Positions 30,703-49,658 of a DNA stretch of 64,000 nucleotides are shown one piece after another. The notes beneath the pieces are model-generated. The model did no database searches, had not been told where the DNA came from, and saw only the letters and a list, made by a program, of their open reading frames with translations. Made by a program: the position numbers and the translations under genes. How positions within the stretch are numbered: the first letter of the stretch is position 1; each line of letters starts with the position of its first letter. Source of the stretch: Streptomyces sp. HNM0575 (GTDB lineage: Bacteria; Actinomycetota; Actinomycetes; Streptomycetales; Streptomycetaceae); assembly GCF_012726265.1 (NCBI RefSeq), contig NZ_JAASAG010000010.1, positions 186,001-250,000 on the forward strand, written 5' to 3'.

Positions 30703-31632
30703 ATGCGCGCGCGATACGGAATCCCCCTCACCCTGACGGCACTCGGCGCGGCCTGCGTGGGCTATGCGACGCTCGTCGAGCCCCGCTCCTTCCGGTTGCG
30801 GCGCGTCACCGTCCCCGTACTGCCGCCGAGCATGCACTCGCTGCGCGTACTGCACCTCTCTGACGTCCACATGGTCGGCGGGCAGCGCAAGAAGCAGCGC
30901 TGGCTGCGGTCCCTCGCGGGCCTGCGCCCCGACTTCGTGGTCAACACCGGCGACAACCTCTCCGACCCCGAGGCCGTCCCCGAGGTGCTCGACGCCCTGG
31001 GCCCGCTGATGGACTTCCCCGGCGCGTACGTCTTCGGCTCCAACGACTACTACGGCCCGAAGCCGCGCAACCCCGCCCGCTACCTGATGGAGAAGGCCAG
31101 CGGCAACCACGGTCTCAACGGCAACGCGCCCGCCGTCGGCGCCGTGCACAACCCGTGGGAGGGCATGCGCGACGCCTTCGACGCGGCGGGCTGGGTCGGC
31201 CTCAGCAACACCCGCGGCCGGCTCAAGCTGGACGGCGGCCAGGAGATCGCCCTCACCGGCCTCGACGACCCGCACATCAAGCGGGACCGCTACAGCGAGG
31301 TCCTCGGTGGCCCCGAGCGGGACGCGGACTTCTCGCTGGCGCTCGTGCACGCCCCGTACCTGCGCTCCCTGGACGCCTTCACCGCCGACGGCTATCCGCT
31401 GATCCTCGCCGGACACACGCACGGTGGGCAGCTGTGCGTCCCGTTCTACGGCGCCCTGGTCACCAACTGCGACCTGGACACGGACCGCGTCAAGGGCCTC
31501 TCCACCCACGTCGCCGGCGGCAACCGCTCGTACCTCCACGTCTCCGCCGGCTGCGGCGCGAACCGCTACACCCCGGTCCGCTTCGCCTGCCCACCGGAGG
31601 CGACTCTGCTGACGCTCACGGCCCGCGACTGA
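30703..31632 (+). CDS. Metallophosphoesterase, membrane-anchored
   Basis: The 309-residue protein has an N-terminal hydrophobic segment (about residues 6-24). Calcineurin-like metal motifs follow: LSDVHMVGG (D-x-H), VVNTGDNLSD (GD), the GNHD variant FGSNDYYG, LVHAP and the C-terminal GHTHGGQLCVP (GH-x-H). Members of this YkuE-like group hydrolyse phosphoesters, perhaps lipid or UDP derivatives; the substrate is unknown. ATG 30703 gives the membrane anchor. It is followed by tRNA-Pro on the same strand. The 232 bases upstream contain only short ATGTCCCG repeats. Confidence 0.9.
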   Translation: MRARYGIPLTLTALGAACVGYATLVEPRSFRLRRVTVPVLPPSMHSLRVLHLSDVHMVGGQRKKQRWLRSLAGLRPDFVVNTGDNLSDPEAVPEVLDALGPLMDFPGAYVFGSNDYYGPKPRNPARYLMEKASGNHGLNGNAPAVGAVHNPWEGMRDAFDAAGWVGLSNTRGRLKLDGGQEIALTGLDDPHIKRDRYSEVLGGPERDADFSLALVHAPYLRSLDAFTADGYPLILAGHTHGGQLCVPFYGALVTNCDLDTDRVKGLSTHVAGGNRSYLHVSAGCGANRYTPVRFACPPEATLLTLTARD

Positions 31633-31838: not shown

Positions 31839-31912
31839 CGGGGTGTGGCGCAGCTTGGCAGCGCGCTTCGTTCGGGACGAAGAGGTCGTGGGTTCAAATC
31901 CCGCCACCCCGA
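31839..31912 (+). tRNA. tRNA-Pro, anticodon CGG
   Basis: The 74-base cloverleaf has acceptor arm CGGGGTG/CACCCCG with discriminator A. The D-arm contains GCGC-AGCTTGGCA-GCGC, the anticodon arm is CTTCG-TTCGGGA-CGAAG (anticodon CGG), and the T-arm loop is TTCAAAT. CCA is not encoded. tRNA-Pro genes are known integration sites for actinomycete elements such as pSAM2, and the accessory region here begins right after it. The tail TTCAAATCCCGCCACCCCG would be the attachment core. Confidence 0.97.
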
Positions 31913-32217
31913 CAGAGGAAGTAGCAGTTCAGGGCCACCTACGAACGTTCGTAGGTGGCCCTGACGCATATTCAGGGTGCTCCCGGAGATCGTTTGGCGA
32001 AATCCTGGCGAAGATCGCAAATCCTGCGCTAGGCGCAGGGTCCCTCTCTCCGCGTTGGCATGCGCCACGTCACGAAAGCCATGTGGCCGCAGGTGGACGA
32101 GCCGGTCCGCGCGCGGACGTGAACCCGAAGAGGAGAAGGCGCCGACGGGGTCGGTCAAATTTCACCTATCGTCACCCAGCAACCACGTGTTGGCTGTCAT
32201 TCGTGATGTCGGTGATG
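31913..32217. other. Gap downstream of tRNA-Pro, with no intact integrase
   Basis: These 305 bases hold the palindrome at 31,929-31,964 and then sequence without a convincing gene. A short open stretch ending MRHVTKAMWPQVDEPVRART just before a TGA at about 32,120 could be a leftover C-terminus, but it has a stop just upstream and I do not recognise it. No tyrosine recombinase motifs (R-H-x-x-R, Y) were found. Confidence 0.4.
31929..31964. terminator. Perfect 36-bp palindrome after tRNA-Pro
   Basis: TCAGGGCCACCTACGAAC (31929-31946) is followed directly by its exact reverse complement. It starts 17 bases after the tRNA and would fold into a hairpin of about 16 bp, so it is most simply the tRNA terminator. 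A palindromic element at this spot could also be part of an integration or resolution site. Confidence 0.7.
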
Positions 32218-35169: not shown

Positions 35170-35730
35170 ATGGCGAGCAAGTCGATGCCGGAGCCGGACA
35201 GCGTGCACATCGTCGACTACCGGCCTGAGTGGCCGGCGCGGGCCGCCGGCACGATCGGTGCTCTGCACAAGGCGGCGCCCGGGCTGTTCGTGGAGATCGA
35301 GCGCGTCGGCTCCACCGCGGTACCGGGGCTCGCGGCCAAGCCCGTCATCGACCTGATGGCCGCAGTTCACGACCTGGCGGATGCTCGCTCTCGGCAGGCG
35401 GCACTGGCGGCGGTGGACTTCCACCCGCACGACAACGGGATGACCGACCGACTGCTGTACGTACGCACCGAGAGACGCGTCCGCAGCCACATCCTGCACG
35501 TGGTGACGCTTGCGAGTTGGCCCACCCGGAACCAGCGGATCCTCCGGGACTACCTGCGTACTCATCCCGACGACGCAGCCCGGTACGCCCGGCTGAAGCA
35601 GGCGATCGCCGCCGCCGGCACGGCACCGGGCGAGTACACCCAGGCGAAGACCGCCCTCGTGCAGGAACTCACCGACCGTGCTCGCGCACAACTCGGCCTC
35701 CCGCCGGAACCCGTGTGGGAGAAGGGCTGA
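35170..35730 (+). CDS. GrpB family protein (UPF0157), intact copy
   Basis: The 186-residue protein has the GrpB hallmarks VHIVDYRPEWPARAAGTI, IERVGSTAVPGLAAKPVIDL (nucleotidyltransferase-like G-S and D), the RSHILHVV strand and RDYLRTHPDDAARYARLKQ. GrpB proteins resemble minimal nucleotidyltransferases and their function is not settled. The ATG at 35170 is used, with a MPEPDS start 15 bases further in also possible. A second, broken copy lies at 37,864-38,173 with about 95 percent identity over 219 bases by eye. Confidence 0.85.
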   Translation: MASKSMPEPDSVHIVDYRPEWPARAAGTIGALHKAAPGLFVEIERVGSTAVPGLAAKPVIDLMAAVHDLADARSRQAALAAVDFHPHDNGMTDRLLYVRTERRVRSHILHVVTLASWPTRNQRILRDYLRTHPDDAARYARLKQAIAAAGTAPGEYTQAKTALVQELTDRARAQLGLPPEPVWEKG

Positions 35731-36037
35731 CATACGGCGCCGCGGGATGCGCGCCGAGGCCGAAGCCGAAGACGGCGGCCACCGACAGGTCGGAGACGCT
35801 TCCGACTACCTGTGGTTCGACAAACGAACGGAAAGGCCCCTAGCCCCCCATCCAAGATCGAGGCTGGGCAGTGACTTCGCGTGTCACGCTCACATCAGGG
35901 GTTGAGTATGGTGCTCGGTCCGCCGATGTCCGCGAGGTGGGGTGACGCTGCCTGCCCCGGCGCAAGCGGGGAATCCTGGATTTGGTGCGCTGTCAAATCG
36001 CTTCTGCCAGCGAGGAGTTAACCCGTGATCGGAGAAC
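35731..36037. other. Gap with a short hairpin, no gene
   Basis: These 307 bases contain a stem-loop, CCCCGGCGCAAGCGGGG near 35,956-35,972, and nothing that looks coding. A GTG at 36025 opens a seven-codon leader before the next gene. Confidence 0.45.
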
Positions 36038-36856
36038 GTGTTGCCTGAGGTCGACGACGAGAGAGTGCTGGCGGCCGATGCTGACAGCCGAAAGGTGGAC
36101 GGACGGACCAAGGGCCAGCGGATACGCAACAGCGCACTGGCCGCAGTCGGCCTCGGCGTCGCCGTACCGGTGCTGGTTCTGCTGTCCCGGCACAGCATGC
36201 TCGTCATGCTGACCCTCGGCGGCATGCTCATTGGCGCTCTTGCCCCGGAGATCTGGCACCGCGCCAGCGGAGGAGTACGGCTGACCACGGTGAACGTCAC
36301 CGCGCCTCCGGGCACGAACTGGTCGTTCGCCGTCACCCACGACGCCCGCGTGACCGCCCGCCGGATCTACAACCAGCTGGCCCGGCGCATCACGACGCGA
36401 CCGCTTCTGGACGGCACCGGCACGGAGAAGGCGGCGATCAAGTCCCTGAAAGCCGCCTTCGACGCCCTCACGGCCCACCTGGACGAGCAGGCCACGGTCC
36501 CGCCGTCGGCGAAGACCGACGACGTCGAAGCGCTCGTCCTGGAGATCCTCAACACGCACCTGGGCCCGTTCCTGGCTGTCTGGCACCCGCTGGCGGACAA
36601 GCAAGAAGAGTCAGACTCGTGGCCCCTCGCAGGAGAGTTCCGGGCAGAGCTGCGCCGTCTGCAACAGGAACTACGGCCCTATATCGTCGCGCTCGGTGAC
36701 GTCGGCCTGGTGCGCGACCCGGAGCGCGTCTACAGCCACCAGCCCCGCTTCCTGCCACCGCGCCTCACCGAAGACGGCCGCCTCGTCGTCACGCTCCCCG
36801 CCGACTTGCCCGGCCCGACCGCCACATCGGAGAACCAGAGCAATGAGGAGCAGTAA
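36038..36856 (+). CDS. Unknown two-helix membrane protein with helical cytoplasmic domain
   Basis: The 272-residue protein has a charged N-terminus of about 30 residues and two adjacent hydrophobic segments (AVGLGVAVPVLVLLS about 36-50 and MLVMLTLGGMLIGALA about 54-69). A long soluble domain with an apparent helical bundle follows, containing DALTAHLDEQATVPP, ILNTHLGPFLAVWHPLADK and AELRRLQQELRPYIVALGD. I recognise no named family. The GTG at 36038 has GGAG just upstream. It faces the membrane-anchored receiver gene at 37171-37809 and lies between the two GrpB copies. A role in signalling or defence is only a guess from the context. Confidence 0.6.
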   Translation: MLPEVDDERVLAADADSRKVDGRTKGQRIRNSALAAVGLGVAVPVLVLLSRHSMLVMLTLGGMLIGALAPEIWHRASGGVRLTTVNVTAPPGTNWSFAVTHDARVTARRIYNQLARRITTRPLLDGTGTEKAAIKSLKAAFDALTAHLDEQATVPPSAKTDDVEALVLEILNTHLGPFLAVWHPLADKQEESDSWPLAGEFRAELRRLQQELRPYIVALGDVGLVRDPERVYSHQPRFLPPRLTEDGRLVVTLPADLPGPTATSENQSNEEQ

Positions 36857-37170
36857 ATACGCACTTCCATGTCACGGGGCATGCCGGTGATCTGGCGCAG
36901 GGATCAGGTTTACGTGCTCCCAAACCGGTGCCTCTACCAGGGACGGCCCGATCACCGTTCAGCTGCGTGTCACCTGCCACGGCGAGCACAGGAAGCCATG
37001 GACCCTCACACCGGAGATACGGCCGCCGCCTCAACCGCAGTTCGCTTGGATCTGACAACGGAACGTGCCACGTGTCAGCACGGCACAAGTCCTGACGACC
37101 GCGCATCACTTCTTCGACTTCTGATCACATTGCTGCCGGCCTTGGCTCGCCCATGGAGATTCCGCCGGCC
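36857..37170. other. Gap between the two unknown genes of the inter-GrpB segment
   Basis: About 314 bases between convergent genes. A plus-strand frame from about 36,869 is open but shows no recognisable motif, no good ribosome site and poor codon use, so I do not call a gene. No clean terminator hairpin is visible. Confidence 0.4.
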
Positions 37171-37809
37171 TCACACTTGCGGTGCACCGAATCTGGCCCG
37201 CTCCATGAGGTCGATCACGTAGTGCACGATCTCCACCGGCTTGGTGGTTGCAGCGAAAATACGGTGGTCGACGCCGAGTTCGGGATTGAAGTTCACTGAG
37301 TGGATCAGGACGGGAAGGCCGATGACCATGCTCTCCAATTCGCGCAACATGCTGATGCCCGCCTGAGGATCTCCATGCCGATCTATGTCGCTGATGATGA
37401 GGTCGTAGGAGCCATGGCCGAGTGCCAGTTTTGCCTCATTGGTCGAGTGCACTGTGTCCACGCGCATTTCCATGGACCGGAAGAGCCTGATCAGGGCGCC
37501 GTTTTTCTCCGGGTGGTCGTCGACCCAGAGGATTTTCCCGCCGCTCAGTGTGTCGGCCGCATGCTCCAGCCTGCCGAGGACTCCACGCCTGGCAGCCGAC
37601 GTCACAGTGATATCGCTCTCCTCGGCAACTTGGTCGATCAGTCGCCCTGCGATCTCGATCTCAACTCCGAGGGTCCGGAGCGCGGTAACCCGAGGAACCA
37701 GGCTTTGGACGATCGTCCCCCGCAACGACAGGTAGACGACGGTGGCGAAGGCTACCCATAAGAGGCTGGGCAACGTGTCAATCAACTTGACCCATATCCC
37801 TTCCGGCAC
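37171..37809 (-). CDS. Membrane-anchored receiver-domain (REC-like) protein
   Basis: About 212 residues from the GTG at 37809; a TTG at 37785 is also possible and no start has a good ribosome site. An N-terminal membrane helix (PSLLWVAFATVVYLSL) is followed by a helical linker and a receiver domain with all key residues: ILWVDDHP (acidic pair), LIISDIDRHGD (phospho-acceptor Asp), LIHSVN (Ser/Thr position) and ATTKPVE (Lys). No output domain follows, so it may be a phospho-receiver acting through protein contact at the membrane. No histidine kinase is nearby. It is convergent with the unknown membrane protein. Confidence 0.65.
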   Translation of the reverse strand: MPEGIWVKLIDTLPSLLWVAFATVVYLSLRGTIVQSLVPRVTALRTLGVEIEIAGRLIDQVAEESDITVTSAARRGVLGRLEHAADTLSGGKILWVDDHPEKNGALIRLFRSMEMRVDTVHSTNEAKLALGHGSYDLIISDIDRHGDPQAGISMLRELESMVIGLPVLIHSVNFNPELGVDHRIFAATTKPVEIVHYVIDLMERARFGAPQV

Positions 37810-37863: not shown

Positions 37864-38173
37864 CGGACGTCGGGACGATCGCCGCGATGACAGAGGACGG
37901 CGATCATGTCGATGCCGGACAGCGTGCACATCGTCGACTACCGACCTGAGCGGGCTTGCGAGTTGGCCCACCCGGAACCAGCGGATCCTCCGGGACTACC
38001 TGCTTGCTCATCCCGACGACGCGGCCCGGTACGCGCGACTGAAGCGGGCGATCGCCGCCGCCGGCACGGCACCGGGCGAGTACACCCAGGCGAAGACCGC
38101 CCTGGTGCAGGAACTCACCGATCGTGCTCGCGCACAACTCGGTCTCCCGCTGGAACCCGTGTGGGAGAAGGGC
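37864..38173 (+). pseudogene. GrpB family gene, second copy with internal deletion and frameshift
   Basis: Bases 37,864-37,950 match the start of the intact GrpB gene and its leader (35,138-35,229). After four extra bases, 37,955-38,173 match its last 219 bases (35,509-35,727) with about ten differences. The 279 bases in between are gone. The net loss is not a multiple of three, so after VDYRPER the frame changes and the protein is destroyed. The right end of the similarity marks a likely border of the accessory segment. The rest of 37,810-38,318 is non-coding. Confidence 0.85.
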
Positions 38174-42472: not shown

Positions 42473-44071
42473 TCAGGTCTTCCGGCCTTCGGCGCCGACC
42501 CCCGCCTCCGCCTTCCCCTCGGCCGGGGAGGCAGATGCCGTGGCGGGATCCGGGCGTCCGGCGGGGTCCGCGCGCCCGGCGGGATCCGCCCGTCCGGCCA
42601 CCGCCGCGGACAGCGCAGAGGACTCCCCGCCCTGGAGACGCAGATCCCTTCGGAACCGCCGCAGCAGGAGCACCGCGGTCGCGGCGAAGCCGGCGCACAG
42701 ACCGGCCCACACGCCGGCCGCGTCCATCTCCAGCACGTAGGCGCACAGCAGCATCGCCGGGGTGCCCACCGCCCAGTAGCCGATGAGCGTGTAGTGGAAC
42801 CCGCTCTTGGTGTTGCCTAGTCCCCGCAGCAGCCCGACGCCGATGTTCTGCGCTCCCTTGAAGAACTGGTGGGCGATCGCGAAGAACAGCAGCGTATGGG
42901 CGACGGACAGCGCGCTCTGGCTCGTGCCGTCGTCCAGGAACAGGCCCAGCACCGGGTCCGGCGCGGCCACGTAGACCAGTCCCACCGCGACCATCAGCAC
43001 GGCGCTGAGCGTCAGGGCCCGGTGGCCGGTACGGGCGGGCTCGCCGGTGTCCTTCTGTCCGACGGCCCGGCTCACCCAGATCGAAGACCCCTGCGACAGG
43101 CCGATGTTGGACTGGTACACGATGTACGCGCACTGGTTGACCACGTTGTGCGCCGCCAGCGCCCCCGGTCCGAAGCCGCCCATCAGCAGCGTCGCGACGG
43201 AGGTGATGCCGGCCTCGGAACCGTAGGTCAGCGAGATCGGCAGCCCCAGCCGCAGCAGGGTGCGGGCGATCGACAGATCGGCCTTCCAGCCCCGTACGGA
43301 CAGCAGGGGCGCCAGGTGGGAATCGCGCCGCACGATCATCAGGAACCCCAGGAACGTGAGGACCTGGACCGAAGTGGTGGCCAGTCCGACGCCGGTGAGC
43401 CCCAGCCGGGGGAAGCCCGCCCAGCCGTAGATGAACGCCCCGTTGAGGCCGGCGTTGACGGCGACGGAGGCGATGGTGATGCCCAGCAGCGAACCGGGCC
43501 GCCGCATGCCCACCGCGAACTGCCGCAGCACGTTGAGCCACAGCATCGGGATCAGTCCCGGTGCCAGAACGATCATCATCGGGCGGGCCAGGGCCAGTAC
43601 CCCGGCGTCCTCGCCGAAGAGGGTCAGGGCGTAGCTGAGGACCACCAGGGCGAGGGCGCCCAGCACGCCGACGGCCGTGGCCACCAGGAAGGACGCCTGT
43701 AGGGACTCCCGTACCTCGCCGCGGGCGACGTCGTCGATCTCCCGTTCCCCCGGATCGTCCGCCGCTTTCCCGCCGCCCCGGCCGTCGCCGCCCGGGTCGT
43801 CGCCGCCCGGGCCTCGCGCCCGTGCGTGACTGCGCCCGGCGGCGGCGGCCACCAGATTGCCCACCGGGGTGACGGCGCCGACGCACATCGTCCGGAGCTG
43901 GTTGTACATGGTGATCGCGAGGCCGCCGGCGGCGACGGCCTTGACGCTCATCAGGCCCATCATGGCGAGGTCGGTGGTGGTCAGTGCCACCTGGGCCAGC
44001 TGGATGCCCGCGATGGGTGCGGAGACGGCCACCAGGGGCCGGTACTCGCGCACCGTGCGCTGGAAACTCAT
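42473..44071 (-). CDS. MATE family efflux transporter, likely metallophore exporter
   Basis: The 532-residue protein has about 12 hydrophobic helices in two MATE halves. It starts MSFQRTVREYRPLVAVSAPI, and a polar Gly/Asp insertion (RGPGGDDPGGDGRGGG) lies in the loop near residues 85-110. The second half begins near GWKADLSIARTLLRLGLPIS. The C-terminus has a small in-frame repeat, AGRADPAGRADPAGRPDP. MATE proteins export small molecules with a Na+ or H+ gradient. The start overlaps the SbnA-like stop by four bases, so it is co-translated with the biosynthetic genes, which points to export of their product. Its base composition matches its neighbours. Confidence 0.9.
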   Translation of the reverse strand: MSFQRTVREYRPLVAVSAPIAGIQLAQVALTTTDLAMMGLMSVKAVAAGGLAITMYNQLRTMCVGAVTPVGNLVAAAAGRSHARARGPGGDDPGGDGRGGGKAADDPGEREIDDVARGEVRESLQASFLVATAVGVLGALALVVLSYALTLFGEDAGVLALARPMMIVLAPGLIPMLWLNVLRQFAVGMRRPGSLLGITIASVAVNAGLNGAFIYGWAGFPRLGLTGVGLATTSVQVLTFLGFLMIVRRDSHLAPLLSVRGWKADLSIARTLLRLGLPISLTYGSEAGITSVATLLMGGFGPGALAAHNVVNQCAYIVYQSNIGLSQGSSIWVSRAVGQKDTGEPARTGHRALTLSAVLMVAVGLVYVAAPDPVLGLFLDDGTSQSALSVAHTLLFFAIAHQFFKGAQNIGVGLLRGLGNTKSGFHYTLIGYWAVGTPAMLLCAYVLEMDAAGVWAGLCAGFAATAVLLLRRFRRDLRLQGGESSALSAAVAGRADPAGRADPAGRPDPATASASPAEGKAEAGVGAEGRKT

Positions 44072-45189
44072 GCGCGTGATCCTGCCTTCACGGTCTCGCG
44101 TATCTCTTCTCCGGGCTCGCGCATCTCTTTGCCCGGCTCGCGCATCTCTTTGCCCGGAAAGGTCGGCACGGGCCCGGCGTAGCCGTCGTAGAGCCGGTTC
44201 AACTCCTCGTCGACCGCCGGGTCCAACAGGCCCCGCTCACTCATCCATTCGTCGTCGAAGACGGTGTCGAGGTACTTCTCGCCCGCGTCGCAGATCAGCG
44301 TCACCGCGGTGCTGCCTGCGGGCATCGCGGCGAGGCGCTTGAGCGCCGTGAGCACCGCCGCTCCGGCCGAGCCGCCGATCAGCAGGCCGGTGCGCCGGGC
44401 GATCATGCGGGCGGTGGCGAAGGCCTCCTTGTCGCCGACCTTCACGCCGTCGTCGATCGCGGAGTAGTCGACGTTGCTGCCGACGGGGAAGCCCTGCGGG
44501 CTGCCGCTTCCGCTCTGCCAGTACTTGCTCCCTGGGCCGCCGAAGATGATCGAGCCGTGCGGCTCCACGCCGATCGTCGTGACGTCGGAGCCGAGCCTGC
44601 GCAGCTCCTTGGCGGTGCCGCACAGTGAACCTCCGGTGCCGACGGCTCCGATGAGGTAGTCCACGTCGCCGTGGAGATCGGATAGGAGTTCGTGGGCCAG
44701 TCCGCGGTAACCCTCGGTGTTTCCGGGGTTGTTGTGCTGGTCCGGCCAGTGGGCGTTCTCCTCGGCGTCGGCCAGTTCGCCGGCGCGCTCCCGCCGGGCC
44801 ATGGTCTGCGGTCCGCCGGTACCCTCCTCGCCGATGTAGACGAGGTCGGTGCCGAGGGCCGCCAGGTTGCGCATCTTGTCCTTGGCGGCGTGGTGATCGA
44901 CGACCGCGGTGAACCGGTAGCCGCGCTCGATCGCCATGAGCGCCAGGCCGAGTCCGGTGTTCCCGGAGGTGGGTTCGATGATGTGGCCGCCGGGCCGCAG
45001 CCGGCCGGACAGCTCCGCGTCGCGGACCATCTGCGCGGCCATGCGCACCTTCGCGGAGCCGGTGGGGTTGAACTGTTCCAGCTTGAGCAGGAGCCGACTG
45101 CCGTTGCCTGAGCAGCACAGTTCGAACAAGGGGGTACGGCCCACCAGTTCGGATACGCCGTACACGATGTTCTCGGATCGGTTGTGCAT
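44068..45189 (-). CDS. SbnA-like PLP-dependent synthase (2,3-diaminopropionate biosynthesis)
   Basis: The 373-residue protein belongs to the cysteine-synthase fold (type II PLP). It has KLEQFNPTGSAKVRMAA with the PLP Lys, EPTSGNTGLGLALMAIERG for substrate binding, VGTGGSLCGTAKELR for the phosphate and GGSAGAAVLTALKRL. It resembles SbnA, which joins O-phosphoserine and glutamate to the precursor that SbnB then oxidises to L-2,3-diaminopropionate. The C-terminal tail after residue 345 repeats PGKEMREPGKEMREPGEEI. ATG 45189 gives the normal start; an upstream extension is unlikely. Having an SbnB-like gene two places upstream supports the assignment over plain cysteine synthase. Confidence 0.88.
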   Translation of the reverse strand: MHNRSENIVYGVSELVGRTPLFELCCSGNGSRLLLKLEQFNPTGSAKVRMAAQMVRDAELSGRLRPGGHIIEPTSGNTGLGLALMAIERGYRFTAVVDHHAAKDKMRNLAALGTDLVYIGEEGTGGPQTMARRERAGELADAEENAHWPDQHNNPGNTEGYRGLAHELLSDLHGDVDYLIGAVGTGGSLCGTAKELRRLGSDVTTIGVEPHGSIIFGGPGSKYWQSGSGSPQGFPVGSNVDYSAIDDGVKVGDKEAFATARMIARRTGLLIGGSAGAAVLTALKRLAAMPAGSTAVTLICDAGEKYLDTVFDDEWMSERGLLDPAVDEELNRLYDGYAGPVPTFPGKEMREPGKEMREPGEEIRETVKAGSRA

Positions 45190-45242
45190 CGGCTGCCTTC
45201 CTCGCGATGCGGGTGGTGCTTCGGGGGGCTTGGGTGAGCGGT

Positions 45243-46652
45243 TCAGCGGTCGAGCTGCCACCGGAAGCGCTCCTTCTCACGGGAGAGGACGACCCTGGAG
45301 GGAAGCGGAAGCTGGTGGAACTCCGTCTCGTTCTTGTCCATCTGGTATCCGGCCGTGTTGGGGTAGACGAGCAGGTCGCCGTACTCGGGGGGCCGCGGGA
45401 GCCGCACCTTGCGCCACGTGAGCATGTCGTATTCCATGCAGCTCGCGCCGCCGACGCAGGCGAGCACGGGTCCGCCGCTCCCGTCCCCGTTCCCGAGCCC
45501 GTTCCCGTCCCCGTTCCCGGCCCCGTGGCCGTCGGCGGTCGAGGGCCACAGCACGGGGTCGGGAAGGTACTCGCTGCCCTTCCACTGCTCGGAGACGCTC
45601 ATGCTCAGCCCGTTGACGGTGACGAACCCGTGGTCCGGGCGCGGCTTGTAGCCCTGCACCGGGAAGCAGGAGAAGCCGGCGCCGTCCAGCAGCGCCCTTC
45701 CCGGTTCGAGCAGCAGCCGGGTGCCGGTGGCCGCGAACTTCGCGCCCACCGTGGCGTGTTCGCCGCCGGCCGGGCTGTCGAGTACGGCCGTCAGCATCGA
45801 GGCACCCACCGGGGACTGGTGGTACGGGTAGAAGTGGGTGAACGTCTTGCCGTTGTGGAACCAGGAGTCGGTGTAGTTCTCGTTGAACTCCCGCCAGGCG
45901 TACGGGTCGACGTAGCTGACCGCGAATCCGCCGCCGATCGAGACCGAGTCGGCCGGCAGGCCGCGCTCCCGCGCCGCGAGGCAGCGGTCGACCAGGTCGG
46001 CGGCGAGCCGCGCCCGCGGTTCGACGGCGTATCCGCCCAGATGGAACGAGAAGCCCTCGCAGACCAGCCGTTCACGTTCCGCGGCACACACGTCGAGGGC
46101 CTCTTCCAGCTCGGCGGGGGCCAGGCCGAACCGGCTGTGCGCGTCGGCCTCGGGCAGTACCCGCAGCAGCAGGCGGACCCTTCCGGTCCCGGCTGCGATA
46201 CCGCGCAGCCGCTCCAGTTCGTCGAGGGCGTCGACCGCGACGAGAGCGCCGTGGCGGGCGGCGAGCCGGAGCAGCTCGTTGCTCTTCGCGGCTCCCGTCA
46301 CCACGATCTCCTCGCCCGGCACCCCGTACCGGAGTGAGTCGGCCAGTTCGGGAACGCTCGCGACGTCGGTCCCGGAGCCGGTCTCGGAACAGACGGGCAG
46401 CCAGCAGGCGGACTTGTTGGCCTTCTTGCCGAAGTAGACCTGCCCCTCGACACCGGCGCCGCGCAACGACTCCTTGAACGCCCGCGCGTTGTCGGCGAAG
46501 CGCTGCGGATACAGCACGTGGAACGGGCCGTTCACCGCATACGCGATGTCCCCGAGCAGCCACGGATCCGCCCGCGCCTCCTCCGCCCACGCCGGTTCGA
46601 CGGCGGGGAGGGACACGGTCCTGGGGGCGGCGGCGACATCGGTCAGCTCCAC
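45243..46652 (-). CDS. Type III PLP-dependent decarboxylase (SbnH/LysA-like)
   Basis: The 469-residue protein shows the alanine-racemase/ODC fold. PLP Lys is in VYFGKKANKSACWL near residue 75, a Gly-rich phosphate loop is in VSIGGGFAVSYVD, FSFHLGGYAV lies between them, and the substrate Cys/Asp motif is GGASCMEYDML near 400. This is closest to SbnH and meso-diaminopimelate decarboxylases. In staphyloferrin B synthesis SbnH decarboxylates a citryl-diaminopropionate; here no citryl-ligase is present. A Gly/Asn/Asp insertion (GNGDGNGLGNGDGSGG) lies near residue 375. The GTG start overlaps the SbnB-like stop by ten bases; the gap to the SbnA-like gene is 53 bases. Confidence 0.85.
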   Translation of the reverse strand: MELTDVAAAPRTVSLPAVEPAWAEEARADPWLLGDIAYAVNGPFHVLYPQRFADNARAFKESLRGAGVEGQVYFGKKANKSACWLPVCSETGSGTDVASVPELADSLRYGVPGEEIVVTGAAKSNELLRLAARHGALVAVDALDELERLRGIAAGTGRVRLLLRVLPEADAHSRFGLAPAELEEALDVCAAERERLVCEGFSFHLGGYAVEPRARLAADLVDRCLAARERGLPADSVSIGGGFAVSYVDPYAWREFNENYTDSWFHNGKTFTHFYPYHQSPVGASMLTAVLDSPAGGEHATVGAKFAATGTRLLLEPGRALLDGAGFSCFPVQGYKPRPDHGFVTVNGLSMSVSEQWKGSEYLPDPVLWPSTADGHGAGNGDGNGLGNGDGSGGPVLACVGGASCMEYDMLTWRKVRLPRPPEYGDLLVYPNTAGYQMDKNETEFHQLPLPSRVVLSREKERFRWQLDR

Positions 46653-47623
46653 AGCGCCACCTGCTTCCCGCGGCCGTCCGCGATCGCCTTGTGCGCCAGC
46701 GCGTGCGCCACCGGAATGTCGGTGATGACCATGCCGCTGCTGAACGCGAAGACCCGGTCGCTCTCGTCACGGCGTGCGAGGGCGCGCCCGGCGACGACGT
46801 CGGGGAACTCGGCGTCGATACGGGCCGAGCCGTCCTCGGCCGCGAACCGCGAGCCGGTGATGCCCAGTTGGCCCTCGTTGGTGGCCAGCGCGTAGTCCGC
46901 CTGGCTCAGGGCCGCGGAGTCGACTCCCTTGCTGGAGACCGAGATCAGCAGTCCCCCCGGCTTCATCCAGCCGGTCTGCACCTTGGGGTGTGCGGCGCGG
47001 CCGGAGGCGGCGATGGCGATATCCGCCTCGGCCACGGCCTTCGGCACGTCCTCGACCAGCTCCAGCTCCCGGTCGGGGAAGTAGTGGCGGAGCCGTTCGA
47101 AGGTGGCGGGGATGCCGACCTCGTGGGTGCCGAACAGCATCAGCCGCTCCAGGTTCGGCAGCACGGTCAGCAGGTAGGGCAGGGTGTTGAGCGCCTGCGC
47201 ACCGGTGCCGATCATCAGCGCGGACCGGGCGTCGGACTTGGCGCACTCCTCCGCGATGAGGGCTGTGGTCGCCGGGGTACGAGAGGCGCCCACGCGGTGG
47301 CAGTCCATCAGCGCGAACGGCATCCCCGTGGTGTCGTCGTAGAGGCTGATGGCCGTGTAGTACTTCTCGGGGTTGTCGTTGCCCTGGCGGTAGGAGGTCT
47401 TGAAGCCGACCTGCTCGACGTTGCCGTCGTATCCGAGCATCGAGTACGACACCGCGTCCCGGTCGGCGTCGGGCAGCGGCATCATCAGTTTGGTCGGGCA
47501 GCGTGACGCACCCCGGGCGTAGGCCAGATACGCCTGGCGTACCGCGGAGATGACTTCCTGCGGGCTGATCTCCAGGTCGGCGAGGTCGCTTCGGGTGAAG
47601 AGATGCAGTTCCGGTTCGGGCAT
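46643..47623 (-). CDS. SbnB-like ornithine cyclodeaminase-family dehydrogenase (2,3-diaminopropionate biosynthesis)
   Basis: The 326-residue protein has OCD/mu-crystallin features: RQAYLAYARGASRCPTKLMM, GFKTSYRQGNDNPEKYY, MDCHRVGASRTPATTALIAE (SbnB-like catalytic region) and the NAD loop LMIGTGAQALNTLPYLL. SbnB oxidatively splits the SbnA product into L-2,3-diaminopropionate and 2-oxoglutarate. ATG 47623 is chosen because GAGAGG lies ten bases before it. It is the first gene of the leftward operon, whose promoter should overlap the iron box about 300 bases upstream. Plain ornithine cyclodeaminase is the alternative, made unlikely by the paired SbnA-like gene. Confidence 0.88.
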   Translation of the reverse strand: MPEPELHLFTRSDLADLEISPQEVISAVRQAYLAYARGASRCPTKLMMPLPDADRDAVSYSMLGYDGNVEQVGFKTSYRQGNDNPEKYYTAISLYDDTTGMPFALMDCHRVGASRTPATTALIAEECAKSDARSALMIGTGAQALNTLPYLLTVLPNLERLMLFGTHEVGIPATFERLRHYFPDRELELVEDVPKAVAEADIAIAASGRAAHPKVQTGWMKPGGLLISVSSKGVDSAALSQADYALATNEGQLGITGSRFAAEDGSARIDAEFPDVVAGRALARRDESDRVFAFSSGMVITDIPVAHALAHKAIADGRGKQVALWS

Positions 47624-47920
47624 GCTGGGCCAACCTCTCGGTCGGATCGTCTGTTTGCTCAAGTTCGCGTCGTCTGGGCCGACTTCGCGGCGCGCTCGTG
47701 CGAGCGGACGGCGTCGGACGTCGTGATGGCGGCCCGGCCGTTACATCGAACGGCGCGTCGGGTACGGGCAGTGGGCGCGACTTCGGGCCCACCCCGAGCC
47801 CGGGACCGCCGGAAGCCGATGCGACGCACCGGACGGGAAGATCCTGCGGCGGCGGCAACTCCCGCCGTATGCAGGCCGTTTCCCGACGGCATGACGCCCA
47901 CGCTAGGGAACCGAACCAAG

Positions 47921-47939
47921 TTAGGCAAGCCTTACCTAA
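47921..47939. promoter_or_regulatory. Iron box 1 (DtxR/IdeR/DmdR1-type operator)
   Basis: TTAGGCAAGCCTTACCTAA matches the consensus TTAGGTTAGGCTAACCTAA at 15 of 19 positions and is near-palindromic. It is preceded by CCAAG, as is box 2. A repressor bound here in high iron would cover the predicted promoter of the SbnB/decarboxylase/SbnA/MATE operon. Confidence 0.8.
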
Positions 47940-48084
47940 TAGCGGTGGAATAGATCACTCCGGTTTCCGCCTCCGCCGTCCCGGGTATCGCGTCCGGCCA
48001 TCAACGGCCTTGTCTCCCAAGGGTGTTGAGCCGCACACACCTGGCCGCCCGCCCGGCGGGACAGGTTTGCCGATCCGATCCAAG

Positions 48085-48103
48085 TTAGGTAAGGCTGGCC
48101 TTG
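48085..48103. promoter_or_regulatory. Iron box 2 upstream of importer 1
   Basis: TTAGGTAAGGCTGGCCTTG matches the left half of the iron-box consensus very well and the right half partly. It lies 22 bases before the start codon of the binding-protein gene, so DmdR/IdeR-type binding would block transcription of importer 1. Confidence 0.7.
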
Positions 48104-48125
48104 CTTCCTCGGAAAGGTTCTCTTC

Positions 48126-49658
48126 GTGACCATCAGCCGACGCAATCTGTTGCTGGCCGGTGCCGCGACGGGCGGTGCGCTGCTCTCGTCCGGGTGCGAG
48201 TCATCCACGTCGTCGAAGCCCGCCGGTCCGCCCCGCCGGGGTGGCACACTGCGGGTCGGAGCGATCGGCCGGGCCTCCGCGATCGTCCGCGATCCGCACG
48301 GAGTGCAGGCCAACGACAGCGACTACCTCATCCTCAGCCTCCTCTACGACACGCTCACGATCCCGGCCAAGTCCCCTTTGACGGCGCCCCGGTTGGCCAC
48401 TCGCTGGTCCCACGACGGCAGCCTGCGCCGATGGCGCTTCGAGCTGGACCGGCATGCGCGCTTCCACGACGGCAGCCCCGTCACGTCCGAGGACGTGGTG
48501 TGGTCGCTGCGCCGGCTGCGCGAATCGGAGTCCGGTGCGTCCCGGCTGCCGGGCATCGAGGCGAAGGACATCACCGCCGACGGGCCGCACACGGTGGTGG
48601 TCGACTCCGGCTACCCCGACAGCCAGGTGCCGCTGCTGATGCGCCTGACGACGTTCGTCATGAAGAAGGGCACGAAGAAGCCCGAAGACGCCCCGGGCAC
48701 CGGCCCGTTCAAGCTGGACTGGTTCCACGACGGCAATGCGCGGCTGGTGCGCAACGAGCACTGGTACGGCGGCAAGGTCTGGCTCGACGCCGTCGAGGTC
48801 ACGATGTTCGAGTCGCCGGCCTCCATGGTCAACGCCGCGCTCAGCGGCCAGCTGGACCTCGCGTCGAACGTCGGCACGGTCGCCGCCCGCAGCGGGCAGG
48901 GCCGGTCCGGGTTCAAGATCGTACGGCGGCCCGACGACATGGCACTCCCGCTCGTGATGCGCACCTCCGACGGGCCGTTCGCCGACAGCCGGGTCCGCGA
49001 AGCCCTGCGCCTCGCCGTCGACCGCAAGGAGATGGTCTCCCACGCCCTCGGCGGTTACGGCACGGTCGCCAACGACGTGCTCGGCACCGGAGACCCGGAG
49101 TACGACCACCACATACCGCAGCGCACCAGGAACCTGGCGAAGGCCCGATCGCTGCTGAAGCAGGCCGACTTCGACCTGTCGAAGTCCCACAAGCTGCTCA
49201 CCAGCGAGGACGTGCCCGGGCTCGCCGAGTCGGCGACGCTGCTCGCCCGGCAGATCAAGGAGGCCGGGGTCGAGCTGGACGTCGTCAAGCAGGACTCCGG
49301 CACCTTCCTCGGCGAGAGCCGCGGCAAGGCCCCGCTGTACACCTCCTATTGGGGCACCAACGACTCGGTGATCTTCTGCGCCGGGAAGCTTCTCGTCTCC
49401 GACTCGACGATGAACGAGGCCAATTGGCAGGACGAGAAGTTCGACGACGCGTACCGCAAGGCCGTCGGCACCGCCGGCAGCGGCCGGCACGAGGACCACG
49501 TCCGCGAGGTCCAGCGGATGCAGCACGACAGCTCCGGCTACCTGCTGTGGGGCATGGCCGACGGCGTGGACCTCGCCAAGGACAAGGTCAACGGCCTTCC
49601 GAGGCTGCCCGGTTACGGTCGCGTACAGCTTGAGAACACATGGCTGAGCTCGTCCTGA
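48126..49658 (+). CDS. ABC importer substrate-binding lipoprotein (SBP_bac_5, dipeptide/nickel type), importer 1
   Basis: The 510-residue protein has a twin-arginine-type signal TISRRNLLLAGAATGG and a lipobox LLSSGC near residue 24, so it is likely Tat-exported and lipid-anchored. It then shows the family features GGTLRVGAIG, LDRHARFHDGSPVTSEDVVW, GTGPFKLDWFHDGN and the closing segment. SBP_bac_5 proteins bind peptides, nickel, metal-opine complexes or metal-aminopolycarboxylates. GTG 48126 has GGAAAGG upstream. The adjacent iron box and the diaminopropionate genes make a ferric or metal chelate the likely ligand (inference). It overlaps the first permease gene by 19 bases. Confidence 0.9.
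   Translation: MTISRRNLLLAGAATGGALLSSGCESSTSSKPAGPPRRGGTLRVGAIGRASAIVRDPHGVQANDSDYLILSLLYDTLTIPAKSPLTAPRLATRWSHDGSLRRWRFELDRHARFHDGSPVTSEDVVWSLRRLRESESGASRLPGIEAKDITADGPHTVVVDSGYPDSQVPLLMRLTTFVMKKGTKKPEDAPGTGPFKLDWFHDGNARLVRNEHWYGGKVWLDAVEVTMFESPASMVNAALSGQLDLASNVGTVAARSGQGRSGFKIVRRPDDMALPLVMRTSDGPFADSRVREALRLAVDRKEMVSHALGGYGTVANDVLGTGDPEYDHHIPQRTRNLAKARSLLKQADFDLSKSHKLLTSEDVPGLAESATLLARQIKEAGVELDVVKQDSGTFLGESRGKAPLYTSYWGTNDSVIFCAGKLLVSDSTMNEANWQDEKFDDAYRKAVGTAGSGRHEDHVREVQRMQHDSSGYLLWGMADGVDLAKDKVNGLPRLPGYGRVQLENTWLSSS

What the first reader, a model, noticed from the sequence alone, without database searches (positions are those of the whole stretch)
36038..37809. Unfamiliar convergent pair: two-helix membrane protein and membrane-anchored receiver domain
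The receiver protein keeps every phosphorylation residue (DD, D, S, K) but has an N-terminal membrane helix and no output domain, and no kinase is nearby. Its neighbour has two membrane helices and an unknown helical domain. Both sit inside a mobile-looking segment bounded by GrpB copies. This could be a signalling or defence module that works at the membrane; nothing in the sequence proves it.
Basis: inference. Interest (0 to 1): 0.55.

Follow-up and report, generated by a model that had tools for sequence, protein, structure and literature searches.

The report
Two unrelated accessory genes, hotspot neighbours
Two neighbouring Streptomyces genes that looked like one membrane signalling module are most likely separate passengers of the same insertion hotspot: one is a stray member of an apparently unnamed membrane-protein family that usually sits beside NAD-cutting (TIR-type) immune-like genes, the other a membrane-anchored receiver whose relatives have drifted away from ordinary two-component signalling.

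Summary
Both proteins are really there, but they are not a module. Among 199 Streptomyces genomes, matches to the two proteins share only the window's own genome. No receiver relative lies among 851 genes called in 66 loci of the two-helix family, and no two-helix relative among 233 genes called in 15 receiver loci.

The two-helix protein (36038-36856) is a very divergent member of a family linked to TIR genes: a TIR or SLOG gene lies within 3 genes in 53 of 66 loci, and TIR genes make up 49 of 128 adjacent genes against 1 of 293 genes five or more away. Its helical domain also ends many of the neighbouring TIR-NTPases (hhalign 99.7%). The own genome has such a TIR-NTPase on another contig.

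The receiver (37171-37809) is the only one of 22 aligned family proteins with all five phosphorylation residues; the other 21 lack the lysine. Relatives occur in viral contigs and other accessory DNA.

Both genes lie past tRNA-Pro(CGG), an insertion hotspot that holds a TIR+2TM pair in one relative and the receiver in another.

Most likely the first is a membrane effector or anchor of a TIR system; this is inferred.

The parts
36038..36856 (+). P0001, two-TM protein with C-terminal helical ('WHP', my label) domain; orphan member of a TIR/SLOG-linked family
   Evidence: no match in Pfam, NCBIfam or PADLOC at E up to 1 or in PHROGs at E up to 0.01
36110..36268 (+). two predicted membrane helices (residues 25-48 and 54-77)
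   Evidence: model; alignments
36284..36334 (+). beta-hairpin (residues 83-99)
   Evidence: model
36338..36703 (+). four-helix WHP domain (residues 101-222), homologous to the C-terminal domain of TIR-NTPases
   Evidence: hhalign 99.7%, E 1.7e-26
37171..37809 (-). P0002, membrane-anchored receiver protein, GTG start
37726..37785 (-). N-terminal hydrophobic helix of P0002 (about residues 9-28, limits set by eye)
   Evidence: sequence; long helix 3-65 in the model
37189..37539 (-). receiver domain of P0002 (about residues 91-207)
   Evidence: Pfam Response_reg, model
35185..35730 (+). GrpB-family gene, intact copy (ATG also at 35170)
   Evidence: Pfam GrpB 3.9e-41
37864..38173 (+). second GrpB copy, a remnant with 275 bp (and 6 bp) missing inside and the frame lost
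31839..31913 (+). tRNA-Pro(CGG) that marks the insertion hotspot
30703..31632 (+). metallophosphoesterase gene, conserved left border of the hotspot
   Evidence: Pfam Metallophos 9.3e-12; matched in 118 of 121 Streptomyces genomes

Best explanation
The two genes are independent cargo of one tRNA-Pro(CGG) insertion hotspot. (1) P0001 is a stray, fast-evolving member of a two-TM family whose members mostly sit beside TIR genes. In its own clade the usual neighbour is a TIR-NTPase that ends in the same four-helix domain. Shown: the linkage, the shared domain, and an unlinked TIR-NTPase of that clade in the same genome. Inferred: the shared domain is an adaptor through which an NLR-like TIR-NTPase engages the two-TM protein, which acts at the membrane (pore or anchor) when the TIR enzyme is switched on by infection or stress; here the two halves would act in trans, or P0001 is a decaying orphan. 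(2) P0002 belongs to a membrane-anchored receiver family often found in accessory DNA. Because the lysine, and often the Ser/Thr, is lost in its relatives, it most likely works as a membrane-tethered binding domain and not as the end of a phosphorelay (inferred).
For: No co-occurrence: the two lists of 199 genomes overlap only in G000; 0 receiver relatives among 851 genes called in 66 two-helix loci, the 66 query genes included; 0 TIR, SLOG or 2TM-family genes among 233 genes called in 15 receiver loci. 2TM linkage: TIR gene within 1 gene in 45 of 66 loci; TIR or SLOG within 3 genes in 53 of 66; Fisher p 8e-28 against genes five or more away in the same loci; in 20 loci the next gene, same strand, 71-322 bp on, is a TIR protein with the family domain. 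Of 10 neighbours scanned with Pfam, 6 show TIR_2 (one, in L151, below its curated cut-off) and 2 SLOG LD_cluster2. Shared domain: hhalign 99.7%, E 1.7e-26. A glutamate at the position of the TIR catalytic residue (E86; its role is recalled) is invariant in 15 of 15 TIR-NTPases, the own genome's included. Own TIR-NTPase: L077, 64% identical to a linked one. P0001 falls in the TIR-NTPase clade (SH-aLRT 96). Hotspot: G350 has TIR + 2TM, and G270 the TM-receiver, just past the same tRNA-Pro, in the window's orientations. Receiver: all five residues in 1 of 22.
Against: P0001 has a very long branch (4.23 changes per site) and keeps only 28 of 42 strongly conserved columns, where five other members checked keep 40-42 of 42-43: it may have lost its old function. 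No TIR or SLOG gene lies near it in the window. G063 has a 2TM gene of the same clade but no clade TIR-NTPase hit; its neighbour is a SLOG gene (the same neighbourhood as L109). A simple hydropathy scan found two hydrophobic segments in 39 of 66 relatives, one in 20 and none in 7; I put this down to wrongly called starts and fragments, unproven. Whether the 2TM proteins form pores, or bind through the shared domain, is untested. The TIR HMM was built from motif hits in the same neighbour set, and genes were called by my own script. G270 holds both the receiver and a 2TM gene. The window's own receiver has all five residues, so it could still be phosphorylated.
Confidence: 0.62

Rival explanations
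1. P0001 and P0002 are a genuine two-gene membrane signalling or defence module, newly assembled in this lineage.
For: They are adjacent and convergent in the window. A second genome, G270, also encodes a 2TM-family protein and the TM-receiver.
Against: No shared genome in the 199-genome comparison besides the window's own; neither family found in the other's called neighbourhoods; convergent, not co-transcribed; different GC3 (0.853 and 0.761), which suggests separate arrivals.
Confidence: 0.06
2. P0001 is a decaying orphan: its TIR partner was lost or moved away, and it now drifts without function.
For: Long branch; 28 of 42 conserved columns kept; no TIR or SLOG remnant in the window; a decayed GrpB copy lies beside it.
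Against: Intact 272-codon frame with gene-like codon use; both helices and the bundle are still predicted; a matching TIR-NTPase is kept on another contig.
Confidence: 0.25
3. The 2TM family is a divergent SLATT family (SMODS- and SLOG-associating 2TM effectors).
For: Same kind of context (TIR, SLOG) and a 2TM plus helical layout; SLATT proteins are described as 2TM effectors that accompany TIR genes (passages of PMC7159879 and PMC9503650).
Against: No SLATT model among the 25 families shown of 39 that matched any of the 62 members, and no family at all for P0001, at E up to 1; hhalign against three SLATT_1 proteins 0.2% (a thin profile).
Confidence: 0.2
4. P0002 is an ordinary phosphorylated single-domain response regulator tethered to the membrane, served by a distant kinase.
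For: All five active-site residues present in the window protein.
Against: The lysine is absent in 21 of 21 other family proteins and the Ser/Thr in 14 of 21 (as aligned there); no kinase family in 17 flanking proteins and ORFs.
Confidence: 0.2

Closest known systems
Thoeris with TM-macro effector (ThsA TM-macro and TIR ThsB)
   Same: A TIR gene next to a membrane protein; PMC11204291 (passages) suggests that TM-macro effectors trigger abortive infection by membrane perturbation after nucleotide-induced oligomerisation.
   Different: No macro, SIR2 or other Pfam domain in P0001; the usual TIR partner in its clade is a TIR-NTPase carrying the same helical domain as the 2TM protein; ThsB models matched the TIR proteins scanned only weakly, best E 0.001.
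SLATT 2TM effectors
   Same: 2TM plus helices, found with TIR and SLOG genes.
   Different: No SLATT match found for the family.
Effector-associated domains (EADs) of conflict systems
   Same: One small non-catalytic domain shared by several proteins of one locus, as the EAD papers describe (passages of PMC8195603 and PMC7159879).
   Different: A four-helix bundle that follows a beta-hairpin in the 2TM protein and sits at the C-terminus in the NTPase; whether it is one of the 12 published EADs was not tested.
Pseudo-receiver domains
   Same: [quoted passage not shown] 21 of 21 other family proteins do.
   Different: P0002 itself has all five; the family adds an N-terminal membrane helix.

Membership tests
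SLATT 2TM effector domains | match to a SLATT profile | tested here: not met
   P0001: no Pfam family at all at E up to 1; no SLATT among the 25 families shown of 39 that matched any of 62 members (14 families, each matched by few members, were not displayed)
SLATT 2TM effector domains | profile-profile similarity to SLATT proteins | tested here: inconclusive
   hhalign against only three SLATT_1 proteins: 0.2%
SLATT 2TM effector domains | two TM helices, linked to TIR or SLOG genes | tested here: met
   for the family, not for the window locus
Thoeris | effector with SIR2-SLOG or TM-macro architecture | tested here: not met
   no Pfam domain in P0001; the hotspot pair of G350 is a DUF1883-TIR gene plus a 2TM gene
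EAD-type adaptor | the same small non-catalytic domain on two proteins of a locus | tested here: met
   where 6 genomes have a long frame (622-729 aa) and a second short frame (215-307 aa) with this domain within about 3 kb, counted by eye; the TIR motif was read in 3 of the 6
EAD-type adaptor | homotypic binding | not testable with these tools
   needs a binding experiment
Canonical receiver domain | DD, D, T/S and K present | tested here: met
   window protein only: D97, D98, D141, S171, K190
Canonical receiver domain | the five residues conserved in the family | tested here: not met
   1 of 22
Pseudo-receiver | at least one of the five residues missing | tested here: not met
   window protein keeps all five; 21 of 21 other family proteins lack at least one
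Two-component or Detocs-type defence system (Detocs recalled) | histidine kinase partner gene in the locus | tested here: not met
   no kinase family in 17 flanking proteins and ORFs from about 26.7 to 49.7 kb; a kinase elsewhere in the genome was not looked for

The most novel reading that the evidence does not exclude
The 2TM proteins and their TIR-NTPase neighbours are an undescribed NLR-like immune pair of Actinobacteria in which one helical adaptor domain, carried by both partners, docks an activated TIR-NTPase onto its own membrane effector; in the window's genome the pair has split, its 2TM half riding in a tRNA-Pro hotspot and its TIR half elsewhere, and works in trans.
Probability: 0.3. 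Interest if true: 0.72.

Novelty: new variant of a known kind. Interest (0 to 1): 0.5.

Why it matters
The window pair itself looks like a chance arrangement. It leads, however, to a 2TM family, its window member without a match in Pfam, NCBIfam, PADLOC or PHROGs, that is linked to TIR-NTPases, TIR-WD40 proteins and SLOG proteins in Streptomyces and other Actinobacteria such as Micromonospora, Nonomuraea and Amycolatopsis. A domain shared between a TIR-NTPase and a membrane protein gives a direct, testable idea of how a bacterial NLR-like protein could reach the membrane. The tRNA-Pro(CGG) hotspot is a simple place to look for more accessory immune genes in Streptomyces.

Tried and rejected
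Module hypothesis: rejected on co-occurrence. SLATT membership: no support. Fold search with the P0001 model: Foldseek found nothing at E below 0.001; VIA gave only helical bundles, best Z 9.4, aligned 134-135, rmsd 3.6-3.7, with cytochrome bo3 chains, below what I would trust for a bundle. PDB sequence search with the family profile: four chance-like hits, two with E near 1e-4 over about 35 residues. PADLOC PDC-M60 hits to the receiver cover only part of the REC domain and were not followed. tRNA-end repeat as attachment site: none in the window. CRISPR-like palindrome at 35955-35972: single copy, chance-level. Promoter and terminator scan: chance-level. Phage records: no match to the receiver or to two viral relatives. 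Plasmids: 4 records matched P0001, 2 matched P0002 over 35% of it. Viral contigs: no relative with P0001 alone, one with the family profile. Passages found in PMC13092281 and PMC10482375 held nothing on either family.

Rows dropped or doubtful: of the 70 loci, L147, L149, L153 and L161 were left out of the neighbour counts because my gene caller gave no gene over the match. Of the 66 kept, L162's matching gene is itself a TIR protein and L166's looks like the end of one, cut by the end of the DNA held. In the 62-row alignment, genes shorter than 200 aa or of 300 aa and more were left out. L106's neighbour is TIR by Pfam but was missed by my HMM and is counted as no TIR. L119 and L125 have no gene to their right at the end of the DNA held and are counted as no TIR. 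L107's 1323-aa 'TIR' neighbour may be a wrong-strand reading.

Full report
What is there. The window is G000:C2:186001-250000 of a 7.4 Mb Streptomyces-like genome in 32 contigs (the genus name is inferred from the named relatives). P0001 (36038-36856, +) and P0002 (37171-37809, -) are convergent and 314 bp apart. P0001 has no match in Pfam, NCBIfam or PADLOC at E up to 1 or in PHROGs at E up to 0.01. P0002 matches Response_reg.

The pair is not a module. A search of 199 Streptomyces genomes found P0001 matches in 21 and P0002 matches in 28, weak ones included; G000 alone is in both lists. With G000 set aside, 2.7 shared genomes are expected and none is seen (p 0.045 for none), so there is at least no positive association. 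In 66 loci of P0001 relatives (of 70 found) I called 851 genes, the 66 query genes included; none matches the receiver profile at E up to 10. In 15 loci of P0002 relatives I called 233 genes; none matches the 2TM, TIR or SLOG profiles at E up to 1e-4. One counter-example: G270, outside the 199, has both, on contigs C103 and C106.

P0001's family. The full-length relatives that I aligned are 200-281 aa proteins with hydrophobic N-terminal helices, a short beta-hairpin and a helical domain with a conserved WHP motif. A hydropathy scan of the called genes gave two segments in 39 of 66, one in 20 and none in 7; starts chosen by my caller and fragments probably explain the rest. A TIR gene lies within one gene in 45 of 66 loci, and a TIR or SLOG gene within three in 53 of 66; at the +1 and -1 positions 49 of 128 genes are TIR against 1 of 293 at five or more genes (Fisher p 8e-28). 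The TIR profile was built from 47 motif-bearing genes of the same set, so I checked 10 neighbours with Pfam: TIR_2 is shown in 6 (one below the curated cut-off) and SLOG LD_cluster2 in 2; one was a WD40 protein whose list was cut at 25 families; the last was a DUF234 ATPase. The neighbours within two genes form these main clusters: 27 genes in 27 loci, mostly TIR-NTPases (25 TIR, 23 with the family domain); 37 genes in 24 loci, TIR-WD40 and related (27 TIR); and 5 SLOG genes in 5 loci.

A shared domain. Profile comparison of 62 2TM proteins with 15 TIR-NTPases gives 99.7% and E 1.7e-26 over 130 columns: the C-terminal domain of the TIR-NTPase is the helical domain of P0001. In 20 loci the TIR protein with this domain follows the 2TM gene on the same strand, 71-322 bp on. 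In the quick tree P0001 joins the clade whose neighbours are mostly these TIR-NTPases (20 of 26 rows, SH-aLRT 96), but on a branch of 4.23, so its exact place is unsure.

The matching half is in the same genome. G000 carries one such TIR-NTPase, on contig C1 (L077:7870-10014), 64% identical to the linked one of L112, with no 2TM gene beside it. In the 199 genomes, hits to its domain at 170 bits or more occur in G000, G097 and G002, all of which also have a 2TM gene of this clade; G063 has such a 2TM gene with a SLOG gene and no such hit. Two of the other 198 genomes have that TIR-NTPase, so finding it by chance in G000 has a probability near 0.01. One genome cannot prove action in trans. In G270 the 2TM gene and a TIR-NTPase both lie near contig ends, so whether they are linked cannot be told.

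The hotspot. The run of transglycosylase/transpeptidase (PBP) gene, YqeY gene, metallophosphoesterase gene (Pfam) and tRNA-Pro(CGG) ends at 31913. The metallophosphoesterase is matched in 118 of 121 genomes. Of 20 genomes whose DNA beyond it I read (about 12 kb each), 19 show the tRNA there; in none of the 20 does a later gene match the window's genes up to 50 kb (blastp E 1e-15), and several begin with integrase-like genes, judged by eye. G090 carries a Vsr-like endonuclease gene and two C-5 methylase genes there. G350 carries a DUF1883-TIR gene and a 2TM gene of P0001's clade 238 and 1244 bp past the tRNA. G270 carries the TM-receiver 184 bp past it. Orientations agree with the window. I read the window's pair as two such cargo genes, 4.1 and 5.3 kb past the tRNA, with other genes between.

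P0002's family. Sixteen Streptomyces proteins align over their length, apart from two called with shorter N-termini. The lysine is present only in the window's protein; the Ser/Thr is kept in 7 of the 16. With six further proteins from viral contigs and E. coli, all five residues occur in 1 of 22, as aligned there. PMC12632262 (passages) calls any receiver that lacks one of the five a pseudo-receiver. Relatives lie beside terminase- and portal-like genes in two viral contigs, L233 and L238 (read by eye). In E. coli the gene is in 26 of 5426 genomes; in the three regions read it lies at guaA beside an AAA ATPase. The E. coli and L234 proteins match the profile from position 52 on, so not in the membrane part. 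A REC-domain relative lies inside a protein beside a MoxR ATPase on a Rhizobium plasmid. PMC7159879 (passages) reports receiver domains, and no histidine kinases, among the vWA-associated effectors of such systems. Some Streptomyces relatives sit instead beside core genes such as recR- and aspartokinase-like ones (L061, L062, L198; by eye). An accessory, conflict-related role is plausible, not shown.

Mechanism. Shown: linkage, shared domain, retained glutamate, own TIR-NTPase, hotspot. Inferred: the helical domain is an adaptor of the EAD type (PMC8195603, passages); the 2TM protein is the membrane effector, as proposed for SLATT (PMC7159879, PMC9503650, passages) and suggested for TM-macro ThsA (PMC11204291, passages). 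P0001 keeps 28 of 42 strongly conserved columns, so decay is a serious rival.

Novelty. I found no description of this 2TM family in eight paper searches of the held library that bear on it or on its partners; a ninth was on integration sites. I did not open most of the listed papers and read only passages of those I opened; the 2015 paper that introduced SLATT and SLOG (recalled) is not held. It may be described there.

Noticed in passing
L077:7870-10014 (G000:C1): The window's genome has an unlinked 714-aa TIR-NTPase whose C-terminal domain is homologous to P0001's helical domain.
   Followed up: yes
L231:7864-8754 (G000:C5): A stand-alone 296-aa protein with DUF4231 and SLATT_1 domains, next to a 1275-aa protein: a true SLATT protein in the same genome.
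   Followed up: partly
L253:5176-8575 (G350): DUF1883-TIR gene and 2TM gene between tRNA-Pro(CGG) and a gene with phage-integrase N-terminal domains and a LacI-like C-terminus.
   Followed up: partly
L241:5574-8363 and L244:6920-9664 (E. coli, guaA): AAA ATPase, integrase remnant and membrane-receiver at guaA in the three regions read; the receiver gene is in 26 of 5426 E. coli genomes.
   Followed up: partly
L233:1564-6424; L238:3264-7417: Membrane-receiver genes inserted among terminase- and portal-like genes of viral contigs (by eye).
   Followed up: no
G103, G022, G104, G097:C423, G060, G001: A second short frame with the WHP domain lies within about 3 kb of a long frame that ends in it; the short one translated in G103 (L076:7545-8207) shows no obvious TM helix. 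G153 and G183 look alike but their longer frame has only 278-279 aa.
   Followed up: no
window 37864-38173: Decayed second GrpB copy, 275 bp and 6 bp missing inside, about 5% diverged from the intact copy in its 3' part.
   Followed up: yes
window 42473-49658: MatE, PLP-dependent synthase-like, decarboxylase-like, ornithine-cyclodeaminase-like and solute-binding genes in a row, perhaps a small metabolite or metal-uptake cluster.
   Followed up: no
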